From the NCBI RefSeq assembly GCF_014356525.2, contig NC_052518.1, positions 34,432,017 to 34,496,016 on the forward strand: DNA of 64,000 bases, given 5' to 3'. The notes under the pieces were generated by a model. The model saw nothing but the letters and a program-made list of their open reading frames with translations, did not search any database and was not told the origin of the DNA. This document shows positions 635-50,966 of the stretch, piece by piece. The DNA comes from Nilaparvata lugens. Lineage: Eukaryota > Arthropoda > Insecta > Hemiptera > Delphacidae. Position 1 is the stretch's first letter, and the number at the start of each line of letters is the position of its first letter. A program made the position numbers and the translations under genes.

Positions 635-2672
635 ATGGACTCATCATCTACGCGTCAGGACTACATTCTTCCAGATACTCCTCCTCATCAACAACAAAGC
701 ACTTCCTTCCCATCTTACTGGGCAGCGCAAGCTGCACAGAAGAAGAAGCTTCCATCTGCCAATAGCAGGGCTGCTCCCGCTGCTGCTGCTGCTGCATCCG
801 ACTGCAAGGACTCACCACTGAAGAGCCATGGTGTCTTTGTGGAGAGAGGGATGAGCAGTGGAGAATTCATTGTACCGGACACACCACCATTTCATCTGGG
901 GTGGGCACCGAGGCATGTACCACTCACAACGATTTCCAACAAGCAACAGGGGAAGAGAAAGCTGCACTTTCTGGAGGAGGATGAGGAGGAAACCAACTTT
1001 GTACCCTCAAAGGTTAGTTATTTCTAATATTATTAACATGTAATGTAAACAGATAATTTTAAATCTTCATATGTTGTCATTAATTTGTTGAAAGCTTGCT
1101 ACTAAAAGCTTGCTAGTATCTGATAAATTTCTTACTTTACTGAGAAAAACTAATTTTCAATAGATCTGTTCACATTACATGTACTCACATTGTGATATTA
1201 AATGATTAGAGTTCAATTTATTGTGAGAAATTGATGAATCTGATTTGAAAGACAATTTCAATCAAGAATTATTTCTTGATAACGAATTGTAATATAGGAA
1301 ATGAAACTATTCAACTTTAGAGTTCAGTTAAGATGTATATTTGAGTTCATGAATATGATGATTACATTGATATATTCATTTGAATTGAGCAACTTCTATG
1401 TTGTTTTATGAAATCAAGGAATATAATTATTTGAAGTAATTAGGTTGAATGCATGCTACTATCTAATAAATTTCTCACTTTACTGAAAAAAAAAACTAAT
1501 TTCCAATAGATGTCTTTGTATTACATGCATGCACAATGTGATATTAAATGATTAGAGTTCAGTTAAGATGTGTATATTTTGAATTCATGAATATTATAAT
1601 GATTACATTGATATGATCATTTGAATCGAGCAACTTCTATGTTGTTTTATGAAATCAAGAAATATAATTATTTGAAGTGATTAGGTTGAATGCATGCTAC
1701 TATCTAATAAATACTTTACTGAGAAAAAAAACTAATTTCCAATAGATGTCTTTGTATTACATGCATGCACAATGTGATATTGAATGATTAGAGTTCAGTT
1801 AAGATGTGTATATTTTGAATTTATGAATATTATAATGATTACTTTTTGAAATTGAACTGATCAAGCTTACTAGTTGATTAGACTTCAGTCAAAAAATTGA
1901 ATAAGATGAATATTTTGATCTCATTATTATGATGCTTACATATTATTTGTACTAATCATGCATACTATTTTTTGCTATAATAGAATATAATATTGAAATG
2001 ATGTGTTAAGAAAATTACTGATTCAGTTGATAGTTATTTGTTGCAATGTACATTGAAAGAGTTTGCTTATTAATTTGATGTATGCATCACTATTGGATTC
2101 TGCAATATGAAGCAAGAAATATTATTTCAATAACTGATATTAATCACTTTGTGTAGAGAATGTCTTGTCAATCTGATGATATCAAGTTGAGATTATGACA
2201 ATGATCTGTTGATCACAAGTAGTTGATAATCTGAAACAAATTATAATAAGTTACTAATCATAGATTTATTTTTATTTAACAGAAACAATGTGCATATGAA
2301 GGTGATAACTCCTCCATGGTTCCACTACTAGAGGAGGAGGCTGCTCGGGATGATGACAATCAGGATGACTTTGTTGCAATCATTAATAGACCCACATCTA
2401 AACCGTGGATGCCTCTCCGCGAGCTGGCAGAAGATGTCCCGCATAGTATCATCTCGGCTCGTGAGGAAACAAACCACCACGGTAGACGAATAATATTAAA
2501 AATAAACATTTCATCTACAAAGAAAATCTCTGAGGTATATCTACCTCAGAGATTTTCATCCATAATTTCCCCCGTAAAAGTTATTAAATTTAATGCTAAT
2601 TGTAAAAATTTAGGAATAGTGGTGAAGCATGTCACCACTACATGGACTGACATTAAGATTGTTAAAATTTAA
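635..2672 (+). CDS. Spliced gene: low-complexity N-terminus plus putative ssDNA-binding-like domain
   Basis: Two exons are proposed, 635-1012 and 2283-2672, joined in phase 0. The intron has a donor GGTTAGT directly after a Lys codon and an acceptor ATTTAACAG at its end, and the reading frame stays open on both sides. The first exon encodes a disordered region with two copies of a PDTPP motif (one reading ILPDTPP, one IVPDTPP), an alanine run and an acidic stretch. The second exon encodes a domain with conserved pieces PLREL, GRRIIL and EVYLPQRF. Block B has a matching single-exon domain at 54485-54850. I associate this domain with a protein family scattered through insect genomes near virus-like genes; an OB-fold, ssDNA-binding role is inference. 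No stop breaks it. An upstream in-frame TTG at 593 is not a plausible start. Confidence 0.6.
1090..1850 (+). repeat. Three tandem units of about 240 bp inside the intron
   Basis: GAGTTCAGTTAAGATGT recurs near 1321, 1556 and 1792 (spacing about 236), and TTGAATGCATGCTACTATC recurs near 1445 and 1687, with a diverged first unit near 1090. The array lies inside the proposed intron of the first block A gene. A related fragment at 49431-49690 has only one unit, so the copies were gained or lost after the blocks diverged. Confidence 0.75.
2522..2557. repeat. Perfect 16-bp inverted repeat inside coding sequence
   Basis: GAAAATCTCTGAGGTA, a 4-base spacer TATC, then the exact reverse complement. It lies within the second exon and covers the codons for the conserved EVYLPQRF segment, so it is both coding and able to form a hairpin in DNA or mRNA. 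Confidence 0.85.
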
Positions 2673-2680
2673 CAATCTTA
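2654..2680. repeat. Perfect 13-bp palindrome over the stop codon
   Basis: TAAGATTGTTAAA, one central A, then the exact reverse complement. The stop codon TAA at 2670-2672 lies in the second arm. It could be a 3'-end or regulatory hairpin; the function is unknown. Confidence 0.8.
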
Positions 2681-3126
2681 TTGTCATACGATGTTGTGGT
2701 GAGATGCTTTACAAGTAGTAGAAGTAGTAGTAGTATATAATGTGAATATTGTAGTGATTAATAATAAATTGTAATATTGTTTTTATAAAAATTGTTTTTA
2801 ATTCTCACCTGTTTGTTGTGACAAAGAAGAAGAAGACGTAGAATAGTACACTGTTCACGCAAGAATAGATCCTCTTGTAACTGAACACTCAATGAATGTA
2901 GAATAGTTCACGCAAGAATAGTAATGCTCTTGTACAGTCAATGAGTGTTCGGTCACAAGAGAAGCTATTATATAGTTGCTGCTGCGCGCGCACGCTCATG
3001 CAGCACATGTCGGTCTTGACCTTGTTGCGAGATTCTCTTCCATCTGTTAGTGCTATACACTCACTATAGATATTGCAATCTATTTTTATCAGTATGCTTA
3101 CAACACTTGAAGGGAGAAGTTGTGCA
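2673..3126 (+). promoter_or_regulatory. Intergenic region with a repeated motif and TATA-like box
   Basis: This holds no gene. GTAGAATAGT followed by TTCACGCAAGAATAG is repeated imperfectly near 2838 and 2899, and GAACACTCAATGA has an inverted counterpart near 2939. TTATATAG at 2968-2975 is a possible TATA box for the membrane-protein gene. A GC-rich run GCTGCTGCGCGCGCACGC follows it. All regulatory roles are inferred. Confidence 0.4.
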
Positions 3127-3555
3127 ATGAAGATAATCGTATGGAGATTTGTATTTGTTCTTCTCTTTATAATATATTGTGTGAATATGCTATTACTTTT
3201 CCATATTGCTTTGAAAAAATATGATTCAATGCAAAATGATAGTAAGAGAATATTGGAATCTATACAAAATGTACGAAATAAGATTAGGGATTTGGAAACA
3301 CCTCAATTGATGCAGGAATCACTGCTAGTAAGAAATCATACATTATCTTATATCAAATCATGTGTCAATTCATCAGATGCTTCTCTTGATGTTAGTCTAA
3401 GACATTGGTATAGATTTATGATTGATGAACGTTCAATTCTTTGCAATTTCTACAAAACTTACAACATACTTAACAAGTGTGTTAATAAGACACATGATGA
3501 TAGAAAATTGTATTCCCTACTGATTAAAACATACCAACTTTGTAGTAATATATAA
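3127..3555 (+). CDS. Small single-pass membrane protein, block A copy
   Basis: About 142 residues. After MKIIVWR comes a hydrophobic helix of about 22 residues (roughly residues 7-30), then a polar, partly coiled C-terminal region with several cysteines and two N-x-S/T sites (NHT, NSS). It reads as a signal-anchor protein with its C-terminus outside. The start is chosen because the ATG-AAG context is conserved in the block C copy (52821-53212), whereas an upstream in-frame ATG at 3094 is GTG in block C. The family was not recognised. Its place between the ssDNA-binding-like and phospholipase genes suggests a virion-membrane or host-membrane role, which is inference. It is open here but broken in block C. 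Confidence 0.6.
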   Translation: MKIIVWRFVFVLLFIIYCVNMLLLFHIALKKYDSMQNDSKRILESIQNVRNKIRDLETPQLMQESLLVRNHTLSYIKSCVNSSDASLDVSLRHWYRFMIDERSILCNFYKTYNILNKCVNKTHDDRKLYSLLIKTYQLCSNI

Positions 3556-3656
3556 AGCACATAGTGAGACAATTTCTTTGTCTCTCGATTGAGGTTGAGT
3601 GTTTGATTAATTAACCTCAGTCGATGTTCAACTATTGTGTTGAAAGGTAATGAAAA

Positions 3657-4379
3657 ATGGTATGTAGGAGAAAGTTATCTTCTAGGAAACGAGGGAGAGG
3701 AATCTTGAGTTCAGCTAGCAAAATTGTCAAATGTATAGCAGGTACTGCTGGGGACATTACATCAACTATTATAAATAAATTGATAAATGCATCCCCCATT
3801 GAATGTTACATCCCCGGCTATCAGTGGTGTGGACCTGGCACAAAGGTTAATGAAAGGTTAAAGAGAGGTGATCAAGGTATAAATTCATTAGATAGAGCCT
3901 GTAAGGTACATGATATAGCATACACTCAAAATAGTGATAATAAGTCTCGAGCGATTGCAGACAGAGCTCTTGCAAACACAGCATGGGAAATATTCAAGAA
4001 TCCAAAAACATCTCTAAGTGAAAAAGCACTTAGTTATCTTAAAACAAACATGATGAAAGCTAAAGCAGCGTTTGGCAGTGGTTTGAGAAAGAAGAAGAAG
4101 AAGAGCACAAGTGTTAGGAAAACTCATAGCAGCTTGATAAAGAAAAAAGCTATTGCTCAGTTGAAACAGCATATTGCAGGTAGAGGTTACTATTTGAAAC
4201 CGTACCCTCCAATCTCAAGTGGTGGTCGTATTTTGATTGGGCCCAACCCCACATCCTCCTCACCATATGGTGTAAGTTTATTCCCAAAGAAAAAAAGTAA
4301 AAAAGGAGTTAAAAAACATAGAAAGACAAAGAAGGTGAAAAAACGAATATCGATGGTGAATTGTCTAATCACGATCTAA
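3657..4379 (+). CDS. Parvovirus-type phospholipase A2 capsid-associated protein
   Basis: 240 residues, opening with a basic segment and a hydrophobic stretch. The calcium-loop motif WCGPGT is at about residue 60, followed by D-R-A-C-K-V-H-D-I-A-Y at about residues 82-92 with the His-Asp catalytic pair typical of the phospholipase A2 domain of parvoviral VP1. The rest is very Lys-rich, with KKKKK runs and a GGRILIGPNP segment. Related proteins in parvoviruses and adintovirus-like genomes hydrolyse membrane phospholipid during endosomal escape. The frame is intact with an ATG in good context. Its end overlaps the start of the protease frame by about 28 bases. The lipase assignment is fairly firm from the motifs; activity is not shown. 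Confidence 0.8.
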   Translation: MVCRRKLSSRKRGRGILSSASKIVKCIAGTAGDITSTIINKLINASPIECYIPGYQWCGPGTKVNERLKRGDQGINSLDRACKVHDIAYTQNSDNKSRAIADRALANTAWEIFKNPKTSLSEKALSYLKTNMMKAKAAFGSGLRKKKKKSTSVRKTHSSLIKKKAIAQLKQHIAGRGYYLKPYPPISSGGRILIGPNPTSSSPYGVSLFPKKKSKKGVKKHRKTKKVKKRISMVNCLITI

Positions 4380-4705
4380 TAGAATGGTGTAAGTTATTAC
4401 AAATTCCCCTACGAGGTGTATACATGATAGATACATTACCTAATAAAATTCTAAGAAATGAAAATTGTATTGTTAATTTAGACACTCAATCTGGACATGG
4501 TACACACTAGGTTGGTTATAAGAAACGAGGATCAAATGTTTACTATTTTGATCCAATTGGTAATTTACAAGCACCTTATGAATTGAATAAATATTGGAAA
4601 AAAGAAACAGGTGTAAATATTTTTTACAATGTTAAGCACATGCAACCATTACATACAAATATATGTGGACACCTTATGCTCTTGTTTTTTGCAAACCAGT
4701 TGTAA
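4352..4705 (+). pseudogene. Adenovirus-type cysteine protease (maturation protease), interrupted
   Basis: An open frame of about 117 codons holds the hallmarks of the adenoviral maturation protease: a GTH motif with the catalytic-type His, the VYYFDPIGN segment with the acidic residue, and ICGHLMLLFF with the nucleophile-type Cys. It is short compared with the adenovirus enzyme (about 200 residues), as in Polinton/adintovirus relatives. An in-frame TAG at 4508-4510 lies immediately after the His, and no in-frame ATG is seen at the beginning, so I call it a pseudogene. It overlaps the 3' end of the phospholipase gene in another frame and is followed 28 bases later by the penton-like gene, which is compact virus-style packing. 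Confidence 0.75.
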
Positions 4706-4733
4706 TCCAGTATTTGTACCAAAAACATATAAG

Positions 4734-4926
4734 ATGGTTGTTATTACATTACGATCTAGATCAAGTGATCTCTATGAACATTTGCAAGAAATTCTCGATT
4801 TGGATAAAAATAAAAAATGGGAAATTGGATTGATAAATTTCTGTACTTACAATAGCATTGCAAATGTTATAAAAGGTGAAAATTCTACCTTCAAATATGG
4901 TGATAAATTAATTGATCTTGATACAG
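4734..4926 (+). pseudogene. Penton-like (single jelly-roll) minor capsid protein, N-terminal part
   Basis: The frame starts at ATG 4734, with SSDLYEHLQEILDLD and WEIGLINFCTYNSIANV segments that I recognise from insect adintovirus/Polinton-type penton-like proteins. After about 64 codons the frame runs into the LTR element at 4927. The remainder of the gene resumes at 13778 directly after the 3' target-site duplication, so the two parts are one gene split by insertion. Confidence 0.75.
4923..4926. other. Target-site duplication, left copy (ACAG)
   Basis: ACAG here is repeated at 13774-13777, flanking the LTR element exactly. The penton-like frame is in register across the two flanks when one copy is counted, which supports the boundary call. 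Confidence 0.9.
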
Positions 4927-7417
4927 TGTGTGCCTGCACTTTTTAAAAGATAATAGATAAGATAATTTTGAATAAAATTTAGAATTTAGAAATAGGCCGA
5001 CACATCTGGAAAATACCTGAGTCTATACCTAATTCATGCAGGTGAACGGGCTAGAGTCAAGAAAACTTCAATTAATCTTGCCATGCCTGATTTAATAGGT
5101 TTATACTATAGAAAAACACTACAATTTGAAATAATTGAAAAATACAAACAGTTTCAATAAACATTGGCAACTAAAATCGAACAACAGAAACAACGATTTC
5201 ATGTTACTTTGTTGACATTCTTCATCTGATTCGGGGGCGCATTACTATCCCCGTTTAGATAGCAATACGTCACAAAACCAAACAATATCAGTCATCAAAT
5301 AACAAATAATTAACTTCAACATAAAATTACTCTAGAAAGAAAAGCCCGTTGAACCCAAGTTTCGTCGATAGTAACCCATATAACCCATTTCATAATAATT
5401 TTGAATCCCCACTTTTGATTGACATTCTCGAATGAACCTTTGTTTCACTACACTGCACTTTCGTTGGTCTGTACGTTGCTTTATCATCGGGGTTACAGTA
5501 CCTTGTTTTTGGCGGTGAGCTTTTACCGGTTGAATTTGGCTTGACGGCGACGTCCTCTTACGTCCCTAGACCTGTCGTCTGAACGGGTGTCTTGAAGCGG
5601 TGTTACATAAAGTTGCGGAACCAAAGGGGTGGTAGTACAAGAAGTTGGTTTGGGGACACACTTGAACCGCTGTAAATAAATGTATTACAGCATTAATTTC
5701 TAACTCTTCCTACAATTCATCAAAAGCTAAAACAGGAGTTATCTATTGATTACAATTAATTAAATTCTCTCATTCTTTGAATCCTCATTTTATATAGATT
5801 TTTATCTTTAAACTACTGATTCTTTTTATCAGAATTAATGGATCTTTCTTCACAAATAATTCAAATTGAAATGATGCTAACTTATATGATATTTTTCGTT
5901 TGGTTTGTGAAATCAAATATAATTTTTCATATAGTAGCTCGGCTAGTATTGTTGGAAACTTGTGCGCCAGCCAACATTTATTTTATTTATTATTTATGAA
6001 CTATAGGACGCAATCCAAGTGTAAATAACGGGCATTCGCCCAAAACTGCTCAGAACCTTAATTAAAAATGAACATTCCAGAGTTTATGATTTGATTTACC
6101 TACAAATACAAGTCCAAAAACTAGTATCAACTGAAATTATGAATTTATCACCTAATAAAACAAGACACTTTATAACACAATAAAAGAAAAAAATATTGAA
6201 AATTTCAATTTAAGGAAAGATAATGTTTGCCTTATAAGATTCATCTTGTGGAATTTTTACCTTTAATTAAATAAAATTAGTAAACACATAGAAAGTAATT
6301 TAAATTGTATTAAAATTTGAACATTCATTAATATTAATTTCCTGGAAAAGAAAACCTTTCTTCTTCGTCTATTAAGATTTCTATCATAAAAAATTTACTA
6401 AATCATTCGACAGCCTTAATGACATAAGAAAACAGAGTCTGAAAAATATAAATTAAAAAATGTCATAAACTCAATATGAACATAATCTTAAAAGTTTCAT
6501 TCCAATTTAAAGGCTATCTTCCTGACTTTCAGCAATACTCTACGATAATATATCTCCAGAAACAATAACTAAAATGTAACGTAACTGAAAACTTTCTATA
6601 CTTCTGTAGATAAAAATTTATAATTATCTTCCATCACTAATAAAATCAAAAGGATTATTCTCAATCAATATTATTAACTTGAAAAATAACAGGCTTAATT
6701 AATTCAATACTCTTATGGAAGTTTCAATCAATTAAATTCCCTAAATTATATTTTAACCTTATTTTACGTACCTTAGCGGTTATTTGAAGAAACAATTATT
6801 CGTACATGATGAAGAAACACAATTAAACCTTTCAGGACATGGCACTACTAGTAAATTTAAACATTAATAAAAAATAAAACTAGCTCCTACATTAACTACT
6901 GAAATAAACTTATAAACCTGCCCAAAAAGGGGGAAACATAGTGACTACATCTTTACTCTCGTAGTGCTCCTAGCAAAGTGTCCTCCGGAACGTAATCTGG
7001 TCTCTCGACTGGGGAATCCCCACTACTGTATTTAGAAACAGGTCTCCTATTGGGCGAATGGAATCAATTTGACCAATCGTCGCGTGGCTTCTACAGCCTT
7101 TGGACCAAATAGTAACTACAAAATCGGTAGTTTGTTATAATTTCAATGCTTGCTGTTTTCCAACTTATCGCATTTTATGTCGCGACAAGAAGGCTAAGTT
7201 TTAGAGATAATTCCATAATCTACATTCCTCGACGACTCAGAGCCACAATTTTTAAATATCTATCATGGGAAACTCGAAGTCATGGCCGTTCATAATAGAG
7301 AGAGAGAAAATAATTTATTTCGCTAACTCACTTACAATAATGGCTCTAGTCTATTGCGTATTAAATTTACTATTATAACATGGGAAAAGGCCTGAATTAA
7401 AGAGAGTGCCCGGCACA
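4927..7417 (-). repeat. Long terminal repeat, 2,491 bp (3' LTR if the element is on the minus strand)
   Basis: Matches 11476-13773 almost base for base. It starts TGTGTGCCTGC and ends CCCGGCACA, giving short inverted TGTG/CACA ends. It keeps about 193 bases (around 7169-7361) that the other LTR lacks. Confidence 0.9.
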
Positions 7418-7431
7418 CTCCCCTTCCTTCC
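7418..7431 (-). other. Candidate polypurine tract
   Basis: On the minus strand this reads GGAAGGAAGGGGAG and abuts the LTR directly, where a plus-strand primer site is expected. This is the main evidence for orientation. A primer-binding site at the opposite end (minus strand from 11475, beginning ACTGCGCAACTC) lacks a clean TGG start and stays uncertain. Confidence 0.55.
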
Positions 7432-10400
7432 GGTGTGAAACACGCAAAAAGAAATCTAATCAGGATATGTTACCATAGAGGCATTCTGTATGATTTGGAG
7501 AGTCGAATTTCTGGATTGATAATAGGATCCAATTTGAAGCGGGCCCTCTTCAAAAGAAATCTCTTTAATCATTCCGAAATTCAGCAAAATGTATAACTAA
7601 TTGAGATTTGTGGCAAGAGTCTTTAAAACTGTGGCAAGAGTCAGGACAAAACAATATGGACGTGTCCACCTTTTAAGTAGGTACTAAAGACGGACCGAGT
7701 ATAATAATCTTGAATACTTCAATCACTTTATTGAGTCCCTGGTTATTTTCTTGGCAAACTCTAACAAGGGAAAACGTTTAAAAGACATCATAGTTTTAAT
7801 TGGTTCTATGTTACTCTGCTGTTGTAAAATATGAAGTACGTTTGATAATAATAGTAAAGGATGAAACTTTTTCACTCAGCTGAATGTATTGAAATCTAAC
7901 TATCATTACTATAGAGTTGAGAGTGCAATATATTTTCAACAATATAAAGCAATTCAATAGGCAATACTATTCTACATCGACTACGATTGAGAATAGTAGT
8001 CGAGAGATAATAATGGTTGAAACTGCAACGCTAGCGAGCCATCGGAGAGCAATGACACACGCTTGATGTACATTCCGTAGCTATGAAAATTTCTATCCAT
8101 TATTGTATTCCAGCAGGAAATCTCCATCACTGAATTATATTAAGTGAACTAAAACGGAAGCAGTTAAACTGAATACACCTATGATAAGATTATAATTGTA
8201 TTAATCATGGAAGGTAAACTAATAAAGAATAGGGATATCAACAAAATAATATGAAATATAAAGCGAATAGAATATAAAATATGAGGCCTTAGACATTATT
8301 CTTATTATTTTATGAATTGGAATATATATTATCTATATTACTAACTCCTAACTATGTGAATGTATAATTCTTAACTATGAATGGATGAGTATTAAGCTAT
8401 TGAAAATGGGTATAGTATAGAATATTATGATAAATCGTCTTATGCTAAATAACTTATTATTATTATTATTATTAGAGACATCATTTACATACATAGTATT
8501 ATGACTGTTGATGACTTCAAAAATTGATCATCACCCGATTTACCAAACAATCAATTATCTACTACCGTGGGAAAACTGTACAATCATTTACCACGAGTAT
8601 GCAGCCGATCAATGAAATAAAATTAAACCTAATTCACCTACCTAAATATATTTAATATTACGAAGCTAATAACATAATTTAATGACTAATCTAGTTGCGC
8701 AAGTTATTTACATTCCGGAATTTCTTCTATATACTTTATATTGTCACGTAACAAAATCTTTGACTAATAAACCCTTCATGAACCCGTAATGAATCCTTCT
8801 AACAAAAACGGTAAATATCTTTATCATAACTCCTTTTCTCTTTTCTCCTTCTCATTCATTAGGAATCATCTCGTTGAGTGTATAGAGACAAGGCTATAGA
8901 GTGGCACCATACTCACAAAAACTTATCCAATTATAACTCACGACAAAAAATCTTGTCTCCAATAGACTGATCTGTTTCCTATTTTTTTTCTGATCTGTTT
9001 CGGATATTTTTCAACATGACTCAAGCGTGATTTTGCATTCTACGATCATGAGAAAAACACTTTTCATTATAATATTCCAGTAGGAAACCTTTACGACAGA
9101 ACGCTAGTCAAAACAAAACTATGATCGAGTGCCAGGCTATCGACAATAATAATTCTGTATTTTGCTTCTCACTAGAGTACGTGACATTTTCTCTAAATAC
9201 TGGAAGCATACTTTTCATCGCATGATTTAATAATATGAAAATTCAACTCGATCAACTAGCTTGGGACTGCTAATGCTTGACTTCTGAATATCAACATTAT
9301 GAAATTTACCAATACATTAACGCATTAATAGACTACTATTACACTATTACTGATTCTCAAGTTCACTGACATTTTCAACCTTACTGGAGCCTCACATAGT
9401 TATTCCTCAACTATAAACTTCATATTCAACTAGTTTCAATTACTCTACTAGATCTTAAAATATCTCAACTTATTCACATGGAAAACTCTCTCACTCTTCC
9501 TTCTCCGTTTTCCTTTGAATTAGACCAAGACTCCTACATCAGTTCACCCGGCATTTAACTACTACTGGCCAAGATAAGATTTCTACTATACTGTTAATTA
9601 CTTTAATTTAATTTTTCCCAACAAAATTATATTTCCTTGTGACACGAATTTTCCTACATATTTCTACTTTATATCCCCATTTGAATTTTTAATCAACCTT
9701 TCAACTCTCAACTACAGAATAATTTAAACTCATGCTTAACTCAAGAGATTTTCCCTTTTCATTTCAAATTCAACTAGAAGAATTTCACTGTTAATTTTGT
9801 TTTAATTTAACCCGTTCAGTACTGTTCCAATATTTATTTCTACTTTCACTGATAACCATTTTAACATTACCTAGGTACTCGAAAAAGTTTCTCTGTTATT
9901 TTATTTGTATACCTCAACTAATCACTTTAAATATTCATTGTCTAAAACCTTCAATTTTCGTTACCATGCAAAATTTCTAAGCAACTTTAAACTCAATAAT
10001 ACCCCTTTTTTACCAATTATTACTTGTGTTTTTGCGGCTGACTTTCCTACCAAACATTAACGAACCTTTTGACTGGGCTTCCCTAAACTGCATTACGCTG
10101 ATTGTTTTCCTTACAATCACTACGAAGACTCACTAAATATTCTAGATTTCGGTTTACGTTATTCTACTGACGAGCCCCATAACTCTCGAATGAACCAGAC
10201 CGTTTACTAGATACAAAAAAAAATCTTAGCTCACACCATCTTCGGTGCCTTTCGCTAAAATTATACAATTCCACCGTACAAATTTGCAAGGTTAGTCACA
10301 GCTAAATTCCTTGATTTGTTACATGGACAACTTTCGGGCAGTGCTCCGTTCTCTCTGGACACGGACCTACACTCGCGCCGACTACCTAAATTCAACAACA

Positions 10401-11475
10401 ACACACACAGGCAGGACATCCCCTTGTCCTCAACTAAATCTTGAGTCTCAACTAAACAAAAAAATTCCCCACAGTCTACAGGACACGTCATCAACACAAC
10501 GGATCTTTACACTATCACTACGCATGCCTACCGCAAAAATCACACCCTAAAAAAAAATATTTCCAATAATAAAACTGATTCACCTTTTCGAGAATAAACA
10601 TTACTGATAAAGGGACTTAACAACCTCATCTGAATCAACTTATTTTCATACAAATTCCCAAGGATTTGATTATCGTTTCAACTTTAATCTACAATACCCA
10701 ATTATTTAGTTTAAACATCTCAAGGCCAAAACTACTCATCAACTTTTCAAAACTACATATCAACAATAACTAATAAAACAGTTTCCTATTTATTCTCTGA
10801 TTACCTTCGATTTACCTAAACTTTTCAAAAGTTTTCCCTATTTTCCCTAAACATTCTCACATAATAATTTCCAAATTTTCCTAATTTACTTGGGTTGACC
10901 TTTAAAATCTCAATATTCACTTTCACTACTACTATACTATGATGTTCAACTACCAGACGTGAGACCAGAATACGTACGTTGACATTACAATAATTTCTAT
11001 CATCATTCACGGAATTACAGAATACAAAAATTTATTCAGCACTTAGGATCAGTTGTTTTTCACCTATGCTAGTTTCTTCTACCAATTTTTATTCTACCGT
11101 TAAACCTTCAATTTCTCAAAAATCAATTTCAATATTAAGTTTTAGAATACTTTCAACTTAAGCATCAATGATACCTAACTTTATCTTTAAGCACTTCAAA
11201 AGATTTTCATTTTGATGGATTTACTGAACTTAATAACTTCCCTATTTCATCTACAATTATTTAAACTTCAGAAAAATAGGAGTAGCAACTATAAATTATT
11301 CATTCAACTCCAAACCTAAAATATTGAGAGTTAACACGTTCACAGAATGAATTATTAAGTATAGACTCAGAAAAAATGATCTAGTATTATTAGAGTAAGT
11401 TATGAAAAATTTAATTTTTTTTGGAAATTTGAATTCCAGAGATTCAAATATCTCTAGGAAGCAGAGTTGCGCAGT
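7432..11475. other. Non-coding interior of the LTR element
   Basis: About 4 kb of AT-rich sequence with frequent stops in all frames. A small ATT microsatellite lies near 8454-8474. I see no recognisable protein domain, tRNA or internal tandem array. Confidence 0.6.
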
Positions 11476-13773
11476 TGTGTGCCTGCACTTTTTAAAAGAT
11501 AATAGATAAGATAATTTTGAATAAAATTTAGAATTTAGAAATAGGCCGACACATCTAGAAAATACCTGAGTCTATACCTAATTCATGCAGGTGAACGGGC
11601 TAGATTCAAGAAAACTTCAATTAATCTTGCCATGCCTGATTTAATAGGTTTATACTATAGAAAAACACTACAATTTGAAATAATTGAAAAATACAAACAG
11701 TTTCAATAAACATTGGCAACTAAAATCGAACAACAGAAACAACGATTTCATGTTACTTTGTTGACATTCTTCATCTGATTCGGGGGCGCATTACTATCCC
11801 CGTTTAGATAGCAATACGTCACAAAACCAAACAATATCAGTCATCAAATAACAAATAATTAACTTCAACATAAAATTACTCTAGAAAGAAAAGCCCGTTG
11901 AACCCAAGTTTCGTCGATAGTAACCCATATAACCCATTTCATAATAATTTTGAATCCCCACTTTTGATTGACATTCTCAAATGAACCTTTGTTTCACTAC
12001 ACTGCACTTTCGTTGGTCTGTACGTTGCTTTATCGTCGGGGTTACAGTACCTTGTTTTTGGCGGTGAGCTTTTACCGGTTGAATTTGGCTTGACGGCTAC
12101 GTCCTCTTACGTCCCTAGACCTGTCGTCTGAACGGGTGTCTTGAAGCGGTGTTACATAAAGTTGCGGAACCAAAGGGGTGGTAGTACAAGAAGTTGGTTT
12201 GGGGACACACTTGAACCGCTGTAAATAAATGTATTACAGCATTAATTTCTAACTCTTCCTACAATTCATCAAAAGCTAAAACAGGAGTTATCTATTGATT
12301 ACAATTAATTAAATTCTCTCATTCTTTGAATCCTCATTTTATATAGATTTTTATCTTTAAACTACTGATTCTTTTTATCAGAATTAATGGATCTTTCTTC
12401 ACAAATAATTCAAATTGAAATGATGCTAACTTATATGATATTTTTCGTTTGGTTTGCGAAATCAAATATAATTTTTCATATAGTAGCTCGGCTAGTATTG
12501 TTGGAAACTTGTGCGCCAGCCAACATTTATTTTATTTATTATTTATGAACTATAGGATGCAATCCAAGTGTAAATAACGGGCATTCGCCCAAAACTGCTC
12601 AGAACCTTAATTAAAAATGAACATTCCAGAGTTTATGATTTGATTTACCTACAAATACAAGTCCAAAAACTAGTATCAACTGAAATTATGAATTTATCAC
12701 CTAATAAAACAAGACACTTTATAACACAATAAAAGAAAAAAATATTGAAAATTTCACTTTAAGGAAAGATAATGTTTGCCTTATAAGATTCATCTTGTGG
12801 AATTTTTACCTTTAATTAAATAAAATTAGTAAACACATAGAAAGTAATTTAAATTGTATTAAAATTTGAACATTCATTAATATTAATTTCCTGGAAAAGA
12901 AAACCTTTCTTCTTCGTCTATTAAGATTTCTATCATAAAAAATTTACTAAATCATTCGACAGCCTTAATGACATAAGAAAACAGAGTCTGAAAAATATTA
13001 ATTAAAAAATGTCATAAACTCAATATGAACATAATCTTAAAAGTTTCATTCCAATTTAAAGGCTATCTTCCTGACTTTCAGCAATACTCTACGATAATAT
13101 ATCTCCAGAAACAATAACTAACATGTAACGTAACTGAAAACTTTCTATACTTCTGTAGATAAAAATTTATAATTATCTTCCATCACTAATAAAATCAAAA
13201 GGATTATTCTCAATCAATATTATTAACTTGAAAAATAACAGGCTTAATTAATTCAATACTCTTATGGAAGTTTCAATCAATTAAATTCCCTAAATTATAT
13301 TTTAACCTTATTTTACGTACCTTAGCAGTTATTTGAAGAAACAATTATTCGTACATGATGAAGAAACACAATTAAACCTTTCAGGACATGGCACTACTAG
13401 TAAATTTAAACATTAATAAAAAATAAAACTAGCTCCTACATTAACTACTGAAATAAACTTATAAACCTGCCCAAAAAGGGGGAAACATAGTGACTACATC
13501 TTTACTCTCGTAGTGCTCCTAGCAAAGTGTCCTCCGGAACGTAATCTGGTCTCTCGACTGGGGAATCCCCACTACTGTATTTAGAAACAGGTCTCCTATT
13601 GGGCGAATGGAATCAATTTGACCAATCGTCGCGTGGCTTCTACAGCCTTTGGACCAAATAGTAACTGCAAAATCGGTAGTTTGTTATAATTTCAATGCTT
13701 GCTGTTTTCCAACTTATTAAATTTACTATTATAACTTGGGAAAAGGCCTGAATTAAAGAGAGTGCCCGGCACA
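11476..13773 (-). repeat. Long terminal repeat, 2,298 bp (5' LTR if the element is on the minus strand)
   Basis: Direct repeat of 4927-7417, with about 13 substitutions seen by eye. The length difference is one deletion of about 193 bases at 13718, where CAACTTAT meets TAAATTTAC; a short TAT is shared at the deletion ends, consistent with a small-homology deletion. Confidence 0.9.
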
Positions 13774-13777
13774 ACAG
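13774..13777. other. Target-site duplication, right copy (ACAG)
   Basis: Second copy of the 4-bp duplication found at 4923-4926. Coding sequence of the penton-like gene resumes immediately after it. Confidence 0.9.
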
Positions 13778-14274
13778 GTGCATATGAAGTTGATGACATT
13801 ATATTAGCTTTAAAGACTTAATTGAATAGTGACGAAAAGAAACTTAATATACAAGCAAACACGAATACTATGAAGCTCGAAATTCGTTCTGATAAGCCTA
13901 TTGACTTTACATCATCCACTTCAATAGGAAAAATGCTTGGTTTTGATAATGTTATATTACAACCAAATAAATGGTATTATTCTCAGCATTTAGTTAGCAT
14001 AACAAATATTGACTCTATTGTAGTTGAGTGCAATATAGCGTGTGGTAGTTACTCTGATGGCAAACAGAAACATATTATATACGAGTTCTCACCTAGAGTA
14101 CCTAGTGGGTATTTGATGAATGAAACGCCTAATCCAATAATCTATATGCCTTTAAACACACATAGAATTCAAAGCATTAATGTAAAGGTAACCGATCAAG
14201 AAGGATTGTTTATTGATTTCCGGGGAGATATAATTACAATTAGACTTCACATTTGTGAAAAACAAAGAACTTGA
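13778..14274 (+). pseudogene. Penton-like (single jelly-roll) minor capsid protein, C-terminal part
   Basis: Continues the frame cut at 4926. Recognisable segments include SIGKMLGFDN, VECNIACGSYSDGK, HTIYEF-like HIIYEFSPRVPSGY, and the end DFRGDIITIRLHI. These match my memory of the penton-like protein found in insect adintovirus/Polinton-type loci. Besides the LTR insertion there is an in-frame TAA at 13819-13821, so this copy carries two independent breaks. From 13822 to 14274 the frame is open. It is followed within 2 bases by the next ATG, as expected for compact virus genes. Confidence 0.75.
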
Positions 14275-14275
14275 A

Positions 14276-14452
14276 ATGGGATTCCTCGTTTTCAAACCTC
14301 ACACTAGCATTTGCTCACAGAAGCTCATTAGAGACTTGAACGTGATAGAGTCAACACCTAAAAAGCAACGTGCTATATCACCAAAAAGCGTGAGAATATT
14401 GGAAAAGTTGGGATTTATAGTAGATTGGCGTCATGTACGGCGCAGCAATTAG
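14276..14452 (+). CDS. Small basic protein between the penton-like and hexon-like genes
   Basis: 58 residues, starting MGFLVFKP and ending in a Lys/Arg-rich region with SPKSVRILEKLGF. Short proteins with a KFLxxLGF-type motif at this position accompany penton- and hexon-like genes in related loci, as far as I recall; the function is unknown and might be a core or cement protein. It overlaps the hexon-like frame by 20 bases. The block C copy has lost this region. Assignment rests on position and the short motif only. Confidence 0.5.
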   Translation: MGFLVFKPHTSICSQKLIRDLNVIESTPKKQRAISPKSVRILEKLGFIVDWRHVRRSN

Positions 14453-15667
14453 TGAAATTCTTGATGTTGAATCTCAACTCGAGTTCTATAATGATATTAC
14501 TAAATTTCAGTTCCATACTCATACAGTATATTTGGGTCAAGAAATTAAACCCTCAGATGAAGCTCGCATCCATGTGGCTTCTATGGATCAGTACAGTCTT
14601 CCATGCAAATCATTTATATTTTTATTGAGGGGGAGGTGAAGTGTACAAAACCAGCTGCGAAGGCTGGGGATGATCCGATAGAAGCTAAGTATATATTATC
14701 CAGTAACCTCATTGGAAATCTCTTTGATGAAATTCGATATGAATTGGCTGGACAACAAATTTCTAAATCAAGACTAATTGGATTAACATCAACAATTAAA
14801 GCTATACTAGTGAAAAATATGTTTGATAAGAACACATATCACTTGGCTGGGTTTGACAGAGCAGGATATACACTAAAAGATAATAAGTTCACATTCTGTG
14901 TACCTCTTAAATTAGTTTTAACATTTTTTGAAGACTTTCAAAGAATAATTTTAAACTTGAAACAAGAACTTGTATTATTAAGATCACCAACAGATCTCAA
15001 TTGCATCGAGTCTACAGAAGCAACAAACATTAATATAAAAATAATGAAGCTTCAATGGAGAATTCCCTATATTACTTTAGAAGATCATGTGAGGTTGAAA
15101 TTTTTGAGATTGCTTGATGCTGATACACCGCTGAAGCTGAGCTTTTGTCATTGGGAGATTTCAGAATTACCAAATTTACAAAATAGAACTGTTCATTCTT
15201 GGGCAGTAAAAACTGCATCCCATCTCGACACACCAAAGTATGTTGTTTTAGCATTTCAAACAGATTGTAAGAATAAAATTAATAAATCAATCTCGGAATT
15301 TGATAGTTGTAATCTTCAGAATGCGGAGGTCTACTTGAACTCTGACTATTTTCCTTATGAAAACCTCCTTGGTAAACAAGAATTGGTGTACCGTATGTTT
15401 TTGGATTTTTCGTCGGCATACTATAACCATAGTATCAATACTGAGCTTGGAACAGAGATTGATTTTGACACATTTTGTACTAAAACACCCCTGATTGTAA
15501 TTGACTGTTCACATCAATCTTCTCATTTGAAATCCTCCACAGATATTAGAATAGATATGGAATTTAAGGAAGTTGTACCTCCAAATACCTCCCCTTATTG
15601 CATTTTAATCAGTGATCGTATCATGGAGTACACTCCTCTTACTTCCATGGTGAAGGAAGTTCAGTAA
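14433..15667 (+). pseudogene. Hexon-like (double jelly-roll) major capsid protein, frameshifted
   Basis: Starts MYGAAISEIL at 14433. The first 63 codons run in one frame and the rest, to 15667, in another; the break is at the T-run 14619-14623 inside the segment around SFIF. After the break the frame is open for about 345 residues, with FDEIRYELAG, SRLIGLTSTIKA, FFEDFQRIILN and a final MVKEVQ. Block B (56760-57893) encodes a homologue about half identical, ending LVREVQ. I recognise the family as the major capsid candidate of insect adintovirus/Polinton-type elements. The break could be a true pseudogene lesion or an error in a homopolymer. Confidence 0.7.
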
Positions 15668-15687
15668 TTTCTCGATAGAGCACAAGC

Positions 15688-15695
15688 TATATAAG
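15688..15695 (+). promoter_or_regulatory. TATA-box-like element conserved with block C
   Basis: TATATAAG about 60 bases before ATG 15756. The surrounding 70 bases, including GTTTTAGCTTTGATCGG, are almost identical upstream of the block C copy, which supports a functional promoter in the ancestor. Confidence 0.6.
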
Positions 15696-15755
15696 TATTG
15701 CATTTTTCAAATTTTACTCATTTGAGGTTTTAGCTTTGATCGGTTAACATCTACA

Positions 15756-16710
15756 ATGTCTTCTAATTCTGAGAAGAAAACACGCTCTATCAGGATACAG
15801 TGTGATCTTGATGAGGAGGAGGAAGACAGCATCTACTATGACTCAAGATGTAGTACACCTAAACCACAGGAGGAGAATGGAGGAGGAGGAGGAGAAGGAG
15901 GAGAAGGAGGACAAAGGAGGACAAAGGAGGACAAAGGAGGACAAAGGAGGAGGAGAAAACAGAGCACATCATCAAACAGAAGGAAGAAACTCTCTCCTGA
16001 AAAAAAATTGCAACAGTCGACATGCATTGGTTCAAGGGAAATTCTAATCAAATTATCGTAAAAGAATCGGAATCGTGGATCAGGTAAATAGCTTTGTTGT
16101 GTTACATTTCAAGTTGCCATTTGCAAAGTCGGAATTGAATGCTAAATTGCGTAAGCAAGCAACATGGGCAGAGAACAATTATCACAAATTACGCTGGGAA
16201 GATGGACATTTTATTTATACAGACGAATTATTGATATCTTATCTTAAAGGATATGATAAAATCTACACAAAAGGTACAGAGAAAGCTAAGTTTCTTGGAA
16301 GGTTACACAAAAACGTATGTTGTTTACTGGATGAAATTGAGAAACCAAATTCTAACTACTTTACAAGTTCTTGGTATTATAATGCCTGTGAAATTCATCA
16401 TTGCAATCTGGGCGGGCGATGTGCGCTCTTCGTAGCTGTTCATTATAATTCTTTGATAATGAAAAATATGGACTCATCTCCAAATTTCATGTGCAAAAAC
16501 AATAGAATGCTTAGCATGAAAAAATGTCAATTCTATTCAAATACAGAAAAGTAAAACTTTGCAAGATATGGCTTTTTCTATAATGGACAAGAAATTCAAT
16601 GTGTTTATTGTATGCAAGCATTGAAATATCATACTGCTCGTGTATGTTGCATTGGAGGGAAGGGGCAGGAACCATTTAATTTGTCTATATTAGTACCGAC
16701 ATATGTATAG
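15756..16710 (+). pseudogene. Unknown virus-like protein with BIR-like C-terminus, block A copy
   Basis: Order of parts: an acidic N-terminus (MSSNSEKK, IQCDLDEEEE), a Gly/Arg/Lys hinge encoded by a GGA-rich microsatellite, a core domain (HWFKGNSNQII, HFKLPFAKSEL, WAENNYHKLRWEDG, YTKGTEKAKFLGRL), and a C-terminal segment with NNRMLSMKKC, FARYGFFYNGQ, CVYC and a later His and Cys. The core resembles a family I associate with insect and cnidarian virus-like loci. The C-terminal spacing R...GFFY.G...C-x2-C recalls the first part of a baculovirus-IAP BIR domain, but the gap to the His is shorter. Breaks: a frame change in or after the GGA tract, another near 16060-16075, and a TAA at 16552-16554. 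Blocks B and C carry homologues. Confidence 0.6.
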
Positions 16711-16728
16711 TTTCTTCATTCGCTCATC

Positions 16729-17004
16729 ATGGACCCGTGCAAGTGGATGCAAGCTGATAGTGAATTGGAAATGAGGTTAGAACAGTGTATTGATTGGTAT
16801 GATGCCTGTAAAATTGCAATTAAACATTAAACTCATGAAAATCATCATTTGGTAAAACAACCAAAAGACATTTTCTTAATCACAGTGAATTTGAACGATA
16901 TAAATGATTATCTATGCTATTACAGTCCCCATAAACTGTCTGTTAGTAAACTAATAAAAATTGAAGAGGAAGTGATGAACAATTGTAGTGAATTGTGTAA
17001 ATAA
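16729..17004 (+). pseudogene. Small unknown protein (WYDAC type), block A copy
   Basis: Begins MDPCKWMQADSELE 18 bases after the previous stop and would run 91 codons but for a TAA at 16828-16830. Conserved parts shared with the block B homologue (55126-55521) include W-Y-D-x-C, INDY/ISDYL and KLIKIEEEV. It is likely mostly helical. No known domain was recognised. It always follows the BIR-like gene in the three blocks, so the pair may work together. Confidence 0.55.
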
Positions 17005-17219
17005 ATTTCTAGTGTATACTCGATTGTTTTCATTTTCCATTGTACCTGCAATGTCTAGGTTTAATCGTTCAGTATCGCTTTGTTAGTTGAGCTGTAAAGA
17101 TCTCACATGCGTTGAAGCTCAATTCTATTTATAGAAGTGTGTAGTATAGTGTGCAGATACAAGTTCATTCAAATAGTTTCTTATCACATTTTACCTGTAC
17201 ATACACTCAACTGAAAAAT

Positions 17220-17565
17220 ATGGTTGATTGTTATAGCTTTTCAAAGTTCAAGAAACTATCTCATCTCTTGATGTCAATTTCATTCAATGAATTTGATCTG
17301 ATTGCGAAGAATATTAAATTTTCAACAGGTGATGAGGTGAGTGATCTTGCATTAATAAAAACAGAAAATCTCCACTTTCCAATTTTATCTGAAATTTTTG
17401 AATTACTCGATATACTAGAAACCGGACATTTCCATTATGGTTGTTCAAATAATGATGAATCATTAGCTATTGTTAATAATTCTAATGATCTCTGGAAATG
17501 CTTATATGACATTGCCAATAAAATCTACAAAAAGATTGTGGCTAAAAACATATCTATGTATTCCC
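17220..17565 (+). pseudogene. Unknown protein beginning MVDCYSFSKF, cut by a retrotransposon
   Basis: The frame opens at ATG 17220 with LLMSISFNEFDLIAKNIKF and continues about 115 codons until it meets the 3' end of a minus-strand non-LTR element near 17554-17570. A TATA-like CTATTTATAGAAG lies about 90 bases upstream. A small piece of a second copy occurs on the minus strand at 49700-49795. No known family was recognised, and the true C-terminus is missing. Confidence 0.5.
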
Positions 17566-20415
17566 ATTCAACAGAGCAACAAGCCTGGACCTGAACGTAC
17601 CCAAGGTTGCCGCAAAAATAACATCATTGGGCAGATCGTTCCAAAGTCTTGAGGCCGTGACCGTAAATGAGTTATTATACATAACTGTGCGGTGACGAGG
17701 TATTTGAAGGAAGTATTCATGCTGTCTCGTGTTCCTGCTGTGAATATGAGCCAGGAGTGTGAATCTTTCCTTCAAATACTGAGGACCTCTCCCCCTGACA
17801 ATCAGCTGATAAACAAGACTCAACATGAAGTATTGTCTCCTCTCTTTCAACTTCATCCAATTTAACCTCCTGTAATATGGAGTGATGTGGTCATCTCTTC
17901 TCGCATCAAAAATAAACCGAATTGCGTAGTTGAGCGATCGTTGTAATCTCAAATTCAGCTCCTCAGTAATGTCGTTATAAACGATGCTGCAGTAATCAAT
18001 GATGGGAATTACCAAGCTCTGTACTAGTGAAACACGAAGGTGGGTTGGAAGGAAATTTTTCAACCGTTTCAATTGATGCATAGTGGCAAACACTCACTTT
18101 GTCAGTTCACCAATCTGATTCGACCAATTCATATTTTTATCAAGCTGTATGCCCAAGACTTTCACACAACTTTCAAAGTGCAGAGCATGATTGGCCAGCA
18201 TTACTCGAGGAAGTGTATTAAAATCTATTTGGTTATACAACCGACCATAATCGATAATGATGCTTTTGCATTTATTTGCATTGAGTCTCAAGCAGTGCGC
18301 ATTAGCCCAAACAATCAAATTCTGAATGTTAACATTCATTGCGGCAATATAGTCAGCAGCACTGTTGGAAGGAAAGTGATTGTAACACACAAGGTCATCA
18401 GCATAAATATGGTATGATATGTCATGAAAAATTCGAGGGAGATTATTCATATAAATAGAGAAGAGGAGGGGACCAAGTATTGTTCCCTGAGGAACGCCTG
18501 CTACAACAGGTAACCACTCTGAAGTCTTGCCATCAGCTCCTCTCACACGTTGATACCTATTGCTTAGGTAGGATTCAAACCAGCAGAGACATGAACAAGA
18601 AAAATTACATTGATTTGCAAGTTTATGTAGCAGAATTGAATGGCAAACGTTATCAAAAGCTTTAGTGAAATCAAATGTGACAAGGAGAGAGAACTTACGG
18701 TTGTCCATGGCATTACGAATGTCATCTGTTATTTTCAAAAGAGCTGTAGATGTACTATGCGATGGGCGATAGCCAGACTGATTTTGATCAAAGAAATTGA
18801 ATGAATTCAGGTATGATGTCGTCTGCTCATGTACCACCCTCTCAAGCGCCTTAGAAATAGTGCAAACTATGCTGATAGGACGGAAGTTTTCAGGGGAGCA
18901 AGGACTACTTACTTTAGGGACGGGACATATTAAAGAATGCTTCCAAAGTGAAGGAAAAACTCCCATTTGTAGGGAAAAGTTGAAAATGTGTGTAATTGCC
19001 GGAAGGATAATGGGTAATATGATTTTATAGAACGTTATTGGAATGCCATCAACACCTTTATTATTTTTCCTAATTGAAAGGATAATTGAGGAGATTTTCT
19101 CAGGAAGGATGTAAGCAAAGAAGAATTTTTCACATGGAAGTGTGTGATTGGTTTGATTTATCATGGCATAGTTCAATAAATGGTGAGAAAATGAAGAGGG
19201 TGGCGACGGAGTGGAGAAGAACCTATTTAGTTGGTCCAAGGACACATTTACAGCTGCAGTTCTTGACTTGGGAGGGACAATCTCAACCTTCCGAATGTTC
19301 TTCCAGAGATCTGAAGTAGATTGCTTACCATCAAATAGCCGATTATAATATTGGATTTTAGCTCTCCTACAAACTGACCTCAACTGGTTTCTCAAAGTCT
19401 TATACCTTACAAAGTCTACACTGCAGCCGGTCCTCGAATGGTCGCGCCTAGCTTTGTCTCTCTCACGCCTCAGTAGAGATATCTCCCTATTAAACCAAGG
19501 GCATGGTCTACGCTGGACCTTGAAGTCACGTTCCGGTGCATGTTGATCGAAAATTGACAAAACCATGGAGTTGAAAGCATTCACCTTATCATCGATATCA
19601 TCCAAATGCACAATATCGTGCCAAGGCTTTTCCACAGCATCAGCAAAGCAACGGTCCAGATCAATATCCCTCAGATTCCTGCCTTTACTATTTGAAGTAT
19701 ATCTGATGTTATGTTCAAGACTATAGATGATATAGATCAAATCATGAGCTGACATACTGAATGACATTTGACCATTCGATAGGACAAAATCTGGATCACT
19801 GACTATCGCAAGATCAAGCAACGTGTGGCAAGTCTCAGTATGGAAAGTGGGTGAACTATCGAGAATTGTCATATTCATCGACTCGAATAGGGACCTCACC
19901 TGCCTACTTTCAAATGTATCCTTCATCTGGTCTGCATTGAAATCCCCCAGAGTGATTACATGCTGATACCTATGCATAACATTAACCAGGTCGCTTTCAA
20001 GGATGAACAATCTACCTGCTTTGGGAGGTCGATATACAACCACAACCAACAAGTTCTCTGAGCCAACCGTCACTTCAACCATCAGAAATTCAGGTGAACA
20101 TGAGTATAATTGGGGTGACGATGCAACTACTTTGGCCGGAAACTGCGATCGAATGTACACAGCAACACCTCCGCCACCCTTACCGGTTCGGTCGTTCCTG
20201 AATAGGGTATACCCAGGGACCTCAAAATAGCTAGACAGAAGACTTGGCTTCAAAAACGTTTCACTTATGGCAATAACATCAATATTAACACGTGAGAGCA
20301 TCAATTTGAACTCATCAAAGTGCGCCGGTAGAGATTGGGCGTTGATATGACACATCTTTAGTGCGTTTGAATGATCACAAAAAACTGACTTCAGCTCGTT
20401 TATGAAATCAGACAT
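17554..20415 (-). pseudogene. Non-LTR ORF2: AP endonuclease plus reverse transcriptase, one stop
   Basis: About 953 codons in a single frame with one in-frame TGA at 18094-18096. The endonuclease occupies about residues 15-235 (HINAQSLPAHFDEF, ISETFL, GGGGVAVYI, GDFNAD, SAHDLIYI). The reverse transcriptase follows, with GVDGIPITFYK, FRPISIVCTISKALE, FDFTKAFDNV (about residue 580), GVPQGTILGPLLF and the catalytic YADD (about 672). The C-terminal part after the stop has the usual WNDLP-type thumb/connection. Length and motifs fit the Jockey/CR1 group. The single stop suggests fairly recent activity. Confidence 0.85.
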
Positions 20416-39363: not shown

Positions 39364-39365
39364 AA

Positions 39366-49699: not shown

Positions 49700-49795
49700 T
49701 GTTATTGCTAGATCATTCACCTATCAAAAATTTAATATTCTTTGCAATCAGATCAAATTCATTAAATGAAATTGACATCAAGAGACGAGATATGG
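49700..49795 (-). pseudogene. Fragment of the MVDCYSF-type gene
   Basis: On the minus strand, LLMSISFNEFDLIAKNIKF matches the block A gene at about 17265-17320 with few base changes; similarity ends on both sides. It lies back to back with the plus-strand fragment that ends at 49690. Confidence 0.7.
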
Positions 49796-50461: not shown

Positions 50462-50678
50462 CAGATAGAAATATGCAAGTAAGGATTTTCTGTTTTTGTT
50501 AAGAAGTTTGATGAAACTCTATAGCAATGATTAAAACTTTCCTTGTCTGACAGCTCGAGAGTTCTGCTCGGTTCACACCAGGTACACATGTACACTTCTA
50601 ATCGCTTAGTGGATACTTAGAACTAACAATATTGAAGGTTTATTGGAATGAGGAATCATTCATGTATACACTTGAAAT

Positions 50679-50948: not shown

Positions 50949-50966
50949 CACGGATGAATGAAGAAA

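What the first reader, a model, noticed from the sequence alone, without database searches (positions are those of the whole stretch)
635..17565. Near-complete virion gene set of an adintovirus/Polinton-type agent in an insect-like genome
In one strand and in compact order there are a parvovirus-type phospholipase A2 (GPGT loop, HD pair), an adenovirus-type protease (GTH, FDPIGN, CGH), penton-like and hexon-like proteins, a membrane protein, an ssDNA-binding-like protein and three unknown genes. The motifs are read directly; the family assignment of the capsid proteins comes from memory of related loci. The mixture of parvovirus-like and adenovirus-like functions, plus unknown accessory genes, makes this the best candidate for a poorly described system.
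Basis: partly seen in the sequence, partly recalled or inferred. Interest (0 to 1): 0.9.

Follow-up and report, generated by a model that had tools for sequence, protein, structure and literature searches.

The report
Broken Polinton virus in planthopper genome
This is one dead copy of a Polinton (a virus-like giant transposon) in what is almost certainly the brown planthopper genome; it carries a gene set known from other insect Polintons and is split by a later retrotransposon, so the kind is known, although its many copies crowd onto two chromosomes that may be X and Y.

Summary
The genes are real, but this copy is not intact and its kind is known. The window shows the virion-side arm of a Polinton/Maverick. 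Polymerase, integrase, ATPase and a BIR gene lie just left of the window edge (L029). Inside are a parvovirus-type PLA2 (Pfam 1.5e-10), an adenain-like protease, a penton-like gene in two pieces, a double-jelly-roll capsid protein (7.2e-84), a degenerate-BIR gene and small unknown genes. An 8,847-bp LTR element (4927-13773, target duplication ACAG) splits the penton-like gene; the site is empty in 10 of 10 other copies fetched. Stops and frameshifts break further genes and both ends are lost. The host genome, almost certainly Nilaparvata lugens by assembly statistics, gave 150 PLA2 matches, the 150 scored of 2,455 candidates. Another copy has inverted end repeats and a 6-bp target duplication. 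Between two subfamilies dN/dS is 0.07-0.22. Insect Mavericks with PLA2, integrase, ATPase and PolB are published (PMC5803895). Least expected: 71 and 19 of 150 matches lie on C15 and C16, possibly X and Y, uncontrolled.

The parts
635..1012 (+). exon 1 of an acid-rich protein
   Evidence: ORF from ATG 635; donor GT at 1013 seen in 9 of 10 other copies, no alignment there in the tenth
1013..2282 (+). predicted intron (GT...AG)
   Evidence: donor in 9 of 10 copies, acceptor AG at 2281-2282 in 9 of 10 copies, no alignment in the tenth; both exons are in phase
2283..2672 (+). exon 2; possible nucleic-acid-binding protein (unproven)
   Evidence: no Pfam hit in the window copy; related copy weak DUF7377 0.0047; homolog in stretch C 54772-54566, 30%
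3127..3555 (+). small protein with hydrophobic N-terminus by eye (membrane protein candidate)
   Evidence: ORF; 94-97% identical in copies a-f, no hit in g-j; homolog in stretch B
3657..4379 (+). parvovirus-type phospholipase A2 protein; frame runs on past the place where 9 of 10 fetched copies stop
   Evidence: PF08398 1.5e-10; (the tenth copy stops early)
4322..4705 (+). adenain-like cysteine protease, broken by an in-frame stop at 4508-4510
   Evidence: motifs; unbroken copies match Peptidase_C5 0.0063 and 0.031, below the curated cut-off
4734..4926 (+). 5' part of penton-like gene
   Evidence: one open frame with the 3' part in other copies
4927..13773 (.). inserted LTR element, probably non-autonomous; LTRs 4927-7417 and 11476-13773; target duplication ACAG at 4923-4926 and 13774-13777
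   Evidence: absent from 10 of 10 other copies; longest frame listed wholly inside 91 aa
13774..14274 (+). 3' part of penton-like gene with in-frame stop 13819-13821
14424..15667 (+). double jelly-roll major capsid protein, frame change near 14600
   Evidence: PF21738 7.2e-84 for 14561-15667; N-terminal piece in another frame
15756..16710 (+). acid-rich protein with degenerate C-terminal BIR (one 357-aa frame in another copy), broken by a frame change and a stop
   Evidence: BIR 0.012 in window piece, 0.00078 in the unbroken copy, below the cut-off
16729..17004 (+). small conserved gene (91 aa in several other copies), stop at 16828-16830
   Evidence: found in 9 of 10 copies, 60-95% identical
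17220..17523 (+). small unknown gene, 3' end lost (about 106 aa in other copies)
   Evidence: found in 7 of 10 copies; 3 database relatives
17554..20415 (-). LINE-type retrotransposon abutting the right end
   Evidence: RVT_1 2.9e-32, Exo_endo_phos 5e-12 for 18097-20475
49713..53250 (-). stretch B: second degraded relative, pieces 82-91% nt identical, no PLA2 to capsid part found
54485..57952 (-). stretch C: distinct lineage (capsid 55% aa to the first), capsid, BIR-like, small gene, homolog of the 2283-2672 exon

Best explanation
The stretch is one degraded copy of a Polinton/Maverick (endogenous adintovirus-like virus) in the brown planthopper. Shown by sequence: the element has PolB, integrase and packaging ATPase on one arm and PLA2, protease-like, penton-like and major capsid genes on the other; other copies carry terminal inverted repeats and, in one, a 6-bp target duplication. 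Inferred: the active ancestor copied its DNA by protein-primed PolB, packed it by the A32-like ATPase into a double-jelly-roll capsid matured by the protease, used PLA2 to cross an entry membrane, dampened host cell death with BIR proteins, and inserted by its integrase. The window copy is dead: an LTR element split its penton-like gene, other genes carry stops or frameshifts, and both ends are gone.
For: Capsid PF21738 7.2e-84 and PLA2 1.5e-10. Own left flank L029: BIR1 92%, PolB 91-93%, integrase 83-94%, ATPase 87% identical to frames of other copies; frames of such copies match BIR 8.9e-22, DNA_pol_B_2 1.3e-12, rve 4e-14 and Pox_A32 6.8e-10. Inverted end matches in 4 of 10 copies searched; copy h has the 6-bp flanking repeat CGCTCA and AG-starting ends. 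Empty site at the LTR insert in 10 of 10 copies. Between-subfamily dN/dS 0.07-0.22 against 0.80 and 2.49 for two frame-shifted capsid controls. Host: genome 1,085,386,871 bases, C5 77,631,935 bases; a published N. lugens assembly has 1087 Mb, 16 chromosomes and scaffold N50 77.63 Mb (PMC11507613, passage and table).
Against: Penton fold not shown (pLDDT 39); protease match below cut-off; no chromodomain hit by Pfam; the 1,004-aa PolB frame of L019 gave no DNA_pol_B_2 hit itself, and the L017 ATPase only TraG-D_C 0.044. Inverted ends were not found in 6 of 10 copies, though for one of them (j) the outer left stretch was not fetched. The window copy lacks both ends. No free-virus relative in viral contigs by capsid or ATPase, so 'virus' rather than 'transposon' rests on gene content.
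Confidence: 0.93

Rival explanations
1. Recently domesticated virus genes kept by the insect for its own use (for example as an antiviral or secretory system).
For: Within-subfamily dN/dS is below 1 (0.31-0.46), and many copies still have open frames for single genes.
Against: Genes of the window copy are broken and copies are scattered over many chromosomes; the ratio is explained by selection on the replicating element before insertion; end repeats and a target duplication mark mobility.
Confidence: 0.03
2. A new virus type made by fusing parvovirus and adenovirus parts, distinct from Polintons.
For: PLA2 of parvovirus type beside an adenain-like protease and a double jelly-roll capsid.
Against: PolB, rve integrase and A32-like ATPase lie in the same element, and insect Mavericks with a PLA2 protein are published (PMC5803895).
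Confidence: 0.02
3. Copies multiplied only by segmental duplication of one dead insertion, not by repeated transposition or infection.
For: A mirrored set of four matches near C15:78.77-78.82 Mb looks like an inverted duplication (positions).
Against: Similarity of copy a to copies c-f runs on for at most about 0.5 kb beyond the last gene and stops at different points; copy h has its own target duplication; purifying selection continued between subfamilies.
Confidence: 0.05

Closest known systems
Sf Maverick 1 and 2 of Spodoptera frugiperda (PMC5803895, passages seen)
   Same: A32-like ATPase, rve integrase, PolB and a protein with parvovirus-type PLA2; a protease with a weak adenovirus endoprotease match.
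   Different: That paper says its elements encode, instead of the PY (double jelly-roll) protein, the PLA2 protein as the capsid-like one; here PLA2, a clear double jelly-roll capsid and a penton-like gene occur together, so PLA2 is more likely an entry accessory.
Adintoviridae, renamed Eupolintoviridae (PMC12451622 passages; definition in PMC11071296 passages)
   Same: PolB, rve integrase and hexon-type capsid gene.
   Different: Not compared with reference adintoviruses, which were not held; no OTU or chromodomain detected by Pfam.
Drosophila-associated adintoviruses (PMC8363768, passages)
   Same: PolB, integrase, capsid, protease and FtsK homologs; 13.3-14.6 kb.
   Different: This family spans about 19 and 20 kb in the two copies measured (h and f, by hand from coordinates; f has an internal duplication) and is endogenous in many copies.

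Membership tests
Polinton/Maverick | family B (protein-primed type) DNA polymerase | tested here: met
   PF03175 1.3e-12 in L017; 91-93% identical frames in the window copy's own flank L029 to the L019 copy. Protein priming itself not tested.
Polinton/Maverick | retrovirus-like integrase | tested here: met
   rve 4e-14 (L017); L029 pieces 83-94% identical
Polinton/Maverick | FtsK/A32-like packaging ATPase | tested here: met
   Pox_A32 6.8e-10 (L033); L029 87% identical to the L017 copy
Polinton/Maverick | double jelly-roll major capsid protein | tested here: met
   PF21738 7.2e-84
Polinton/Maverick | single jelly-roll penton near the capsid gene | tested here: inconclusive
   gene lies directly upstream of the capsid gene, one of the two positions given in PMC4028283 (passages); model pLDDT 39; no meaningful Pfam or PDB match
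Polinton/Maverick | adenovirus-like cysteine protease | tested here: inconclusive
   only Pfam hit Peptidase_C5, 0.0063 and 0.031, below cut-off; motifs present
Polinton/Maverick | terminal inverted repeats | tested here: met
   4 of 10 copies (e, f, h, i) gave inverted end matches; 235 bp 99% in f, 617 aligned columns 88% in h. The window copy itself has lost its ends.
Polinton/Maverick | 6-bp target-site duplication (recalled) | tested here: met
   CGCTCA on both sides of copy h; ends of e, f and i could not be delimited; not testable in the window copy
Adintovirus (Eupolintoviridae) | hexon recognisable by BLASTp against adintovirus references | not tested
   reference sequences not held
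Adintovirus (Eupolintoviridae) | PolB with N-terminal OTU-like domain | tested here: inconclusive
   no Pfam OTU hit; the domain was published from structure models (PMC11071308 passages)
Adintovirus (Eupolintoviridae) | integrase C-terminal chromodomain | tested here: inconclusive
   no Pfam Chromo hit; a chromodomain-like tail seen by eye
Parvovirus/densovirus | NS1 helicase and parvovirus capsid beside the PLA2 | tested here: not met
   none among the 18 window frames scanned

The most novel reading that the evidence does not exclude
A Polinton family with one clear and one degenerate BIR gene and a PLA2 has multiplied in the brown planthopper and piled up on its sex chromosomes: 71 of 150 scored PLA2 matches are on C15 (14.6 expected by length) and 19 of 150 on C16 (1.4 expected), the C16 matches being 18 of 106 in the closer subfamily but 1 of 44 in the other. 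That would be a case of virus-derived transposons shaping an insect Y chromosome.
Probability: 0.35. Interest if true: 0.55.

Novelty: new member of a known kind. Interest (0 to 1): 0.35.

Why it matters
It shows PLA2, a double jelly-roll capsid gene and a penton-like gene together in one insect Polinton, which argues that the PLA2 protein is an entry accessory and not the capsid. The family also gives a well-populated fossil record of a Polinton invasion in a major crop pest, with two subfamilies for dating, and a chromosome bias that can be tested with existing reads.

Tried and rejected
Death-effector-domain idea for the 17220-17523 gene: raised by eye from the sequence, not supported (no Pfam hit; model pLDDT 56; best Foldseek E 6.0; no PDB sequence match). 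A low-confidence model cannot exclude it. Penton fold: no usable model. Search for free relatives: capsid and ATPase in viral contigs, capsid relative P0005 in genome contigs: none confirmed. Repeats at 20871-21409 as the lost right end: no match to the right-end stretches of copies a, d, e, f, h. My alignment of the two LTRs placed an end gap wrongly (K2P 0.0163); I use the BLAST counts instead (12 differences in 2,246 plus 1 in 59). My first capsid dN/dS run was out of frame and was replaced, where shifted frames serve as controls. Genome-wide counts of the capsid and polymerase families and a LINE control for the chromosome bias were asked for but did not complete.
Full report
WHAT IS IN THE WINDOW. 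Pfam clearly identifies the PLA2 protein (3657-4379, PF08398, 1.5e-10) and the capsid protein (14561-15667, PF21738 double jelly-roll, 7.2e-84). The protease motifs are there (GTH, FDPIGN, CGH); two unbroken relatives match adenovirus endoprotease only weakly and below the curated cut-off (0.0063 and 0.031). The penton-like gene lies directly upstream of the capsid gene, one of the positions PMC4028283 gives for Polinton pentons (passages seen), but its fold could not be modelled (pLDDT 39).

THE GENE ROW IS INTERRUPTED. Bases 4927-13773 are an LTR element: long direct repeats (4927-7417 and 11476-13773; 12 differences in 2,246 aligned bases plus 1 in 59), TG...CA ends and a 4-bp duplication ACAG at 4923-4926 and 13774-13777. 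It sits inside the penton-like gene. In 10 of 10 other genomic copies fetched the site is empty. Taking a recalled insect mutation rate near 3e-9 per base per generation, the insertion is of the order of one million generations old.

OTHER DAMAGE. Stops at 4508-4510, 13819-13821, 16552-16554 and 16828-16830, a change of frame near 14600 in the capsid gene and before 16048 in the BIR-like gene. The PLA2 frame runs on past the place where 9 of 10 fetched copies stop. Both ends are lost: on the right a LINE abuts at 17554 and similarity to other copies ends at 17523; on the left, similarity ends near base 2555 of L029. At least five genes are broken.

THE MISSING HALF. The window is C15:34432017-34496016 of a 1,085,386,871-base genome. 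Its left flank (L029) carries, on the opposite strand, frames 91-93% identical to PolB, 83-94% to integrase and 87% to ATPase of other copies, and on the same strand a BIR gene 92% identical. Frames of such copies match DNA_pol_B_2 (1.3e-12), rve (4e-14), BIR (8.9e-22) and Pox_A32 (6.8e-10). One long PolB frame (L019) gave no such hit on its own, although it is the same gene by similarity.

THE FAMILY. The PLA2 search scored 150 of 2,455 candidates in the genome, and all 150 matched, at E <= 5.2e-94: 106 at 76-100% identity including the window copy itself, 44 at 68-73%. I fetched ten of them, picked by me from the list: six of the first group (a-f) and four of the second (g-j). Inverted matches between the two ends were found in 4 of 10 (e, f, h, i). 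Copy h has ends beginning AGTAGTT, the flanking hexamer CGCTCA on both sides and spans about 19 kb (by hand from coordinates). Mean dN/dS between the two groups is 0.07-0.22 for PLA2, penton 3' part, capsid, integrase, PolB, ATPase and BIR1; within the first group 0.31-0.46; window copy against the first group 0.20-0.61. Two shifted frames of the capsid gene give 0.80 and 2.49 between groups and 0.52-0.85 within groups (1.34 and 0.62 for the window copy); the within-group contrast is thus weaker, one control (0.52) lying close to the in-frame value of 0.45. Pairs with fewer than 60 shared codons were left out, saturated values were dropped from means, and between-group dS is high (0.70-2.37), so those ratios are rough. 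The reading is that the genes evolved under constraint while the element was replicating and decayed after insertion.

A SPLICED GENE. The first two frames (635-1012 and 2283-2672) are in phase across a GT-AG intron. The donor GT is kept in 9 of 10 copies and the acceptor AG in 9 of 10, the remaining one in each case having no alignment there; the second group, only about 71-83% alike at these places, keeps the donor in 4 of 4 and the acceptor in 3 of 3 that align. Transcripts were not available.

THE HOST. Genome length and C5 of 77,631,935 bases fit a published N. lugens assembly of 1087 Mb, 16 chromosomes and scaffold N50 77.63 Mb (PMC11507613, passage and table). Among the 90 capsid relatives, the one named as planthopper is also from N. 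lugens (P0005, 57%). I could not test P0005 against this genome. In a tree of 92 capsid proteins, the window's A and C capsids fall in a fully supported group of nine with P0001-P0007.

WHAT IS KNOWN. Polintons encode such capsid proteins (PMC4028283, passages). Insect Mavericks with A32-like ATPase, integrase with chromodomain, PolB and a PLA2 protein were described in Spodoptera (PMC5803895, passages); there the PLA2 protein was taken for the capsid in place of the double jelly-roll protein. Adintoviruses are reported from Drosophila samples (PMC8363768, passages) and in over 1,000 contigs of potato beetle data (PMC9963324, passages). A lipase class of membrane-active capsid-core proteins is named in PMC11071296 (passages). 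Searches (4 papers; 6 papers) showed no title on Polintons of planthoppers; I saw the listings, and passages of one of the papers (PMC12567637). The founding adintovirus paper was not held.

SMALL UNKNOWN GENES. The 357-aa acid-rich protein with a degenerate BIR has 3 relatives in the database search and the 106-aa gene has 3, none with an organism name. A death-effector fold for the latter was considered and not supported.

THE UNEXPECTED PART. Of 150 scored matches, 71 are on C15 (9.7% of the genome) and 19 on C16 (0.9%). Of the contig lengths I saw, C2 to C7 fall from 99.8 to 65.1 Mb, while C15 has 105.7 Mb and C16 10.1 Mb; in an assembly of this species 14 autosomes, X and Y are described. 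That C15 and C16 are X and Y is inference. Cautions: the query copy is itself on C15, only 150 of 2,455 candidates were scored, a mirrored group near C15:78.8 Mb is probably a duplication, and no other transposon could be counted as control because the genome search did not complete again.

Noticed in passing
C15 and C16 of the host genome (table): 71 and 19 of 150 scored PLA2 matches lie on these two chromosomes, against 14.6 and 1.4 expected by length; possibly X and Y. No control was possible.
   Followed up: partly
window 54485-57952: A second Polinton lineage (capsid 55% aa to the first, 97% to P0006) in which the homolog of the 2283-2672 exon follows the 16729-type small gene instead of preceding the membrane and PLA2 genes.
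   Followed up: partly
window 50236-50461 and 54105-54330: A 226-bp perfect inverted repeat around stretch B; 84% copies, also an inverted pair, occur in L036 at 400-617 and 2105-2322.
   Followed up: partly
C15:78766730-78825542: Four PLA2 matches placed as a mirror image, suggesting a large inverted duplication or palindrome.
   Followed up: no
window 38148-39816 and 45934-47517: Two copies, about 95% identical, of a stretch with retroelement-like frames (by eye, not tested).
   Followed up: no
window 62161-63621: Tandem array with a unit near 165 bases.
   Followed up: no
L029:519-2604: Gag-like frames with zinc knuckles (by eye; no Pfam hit for 1344-2099) where the left end of the window's element should be.
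   Followed up: partly
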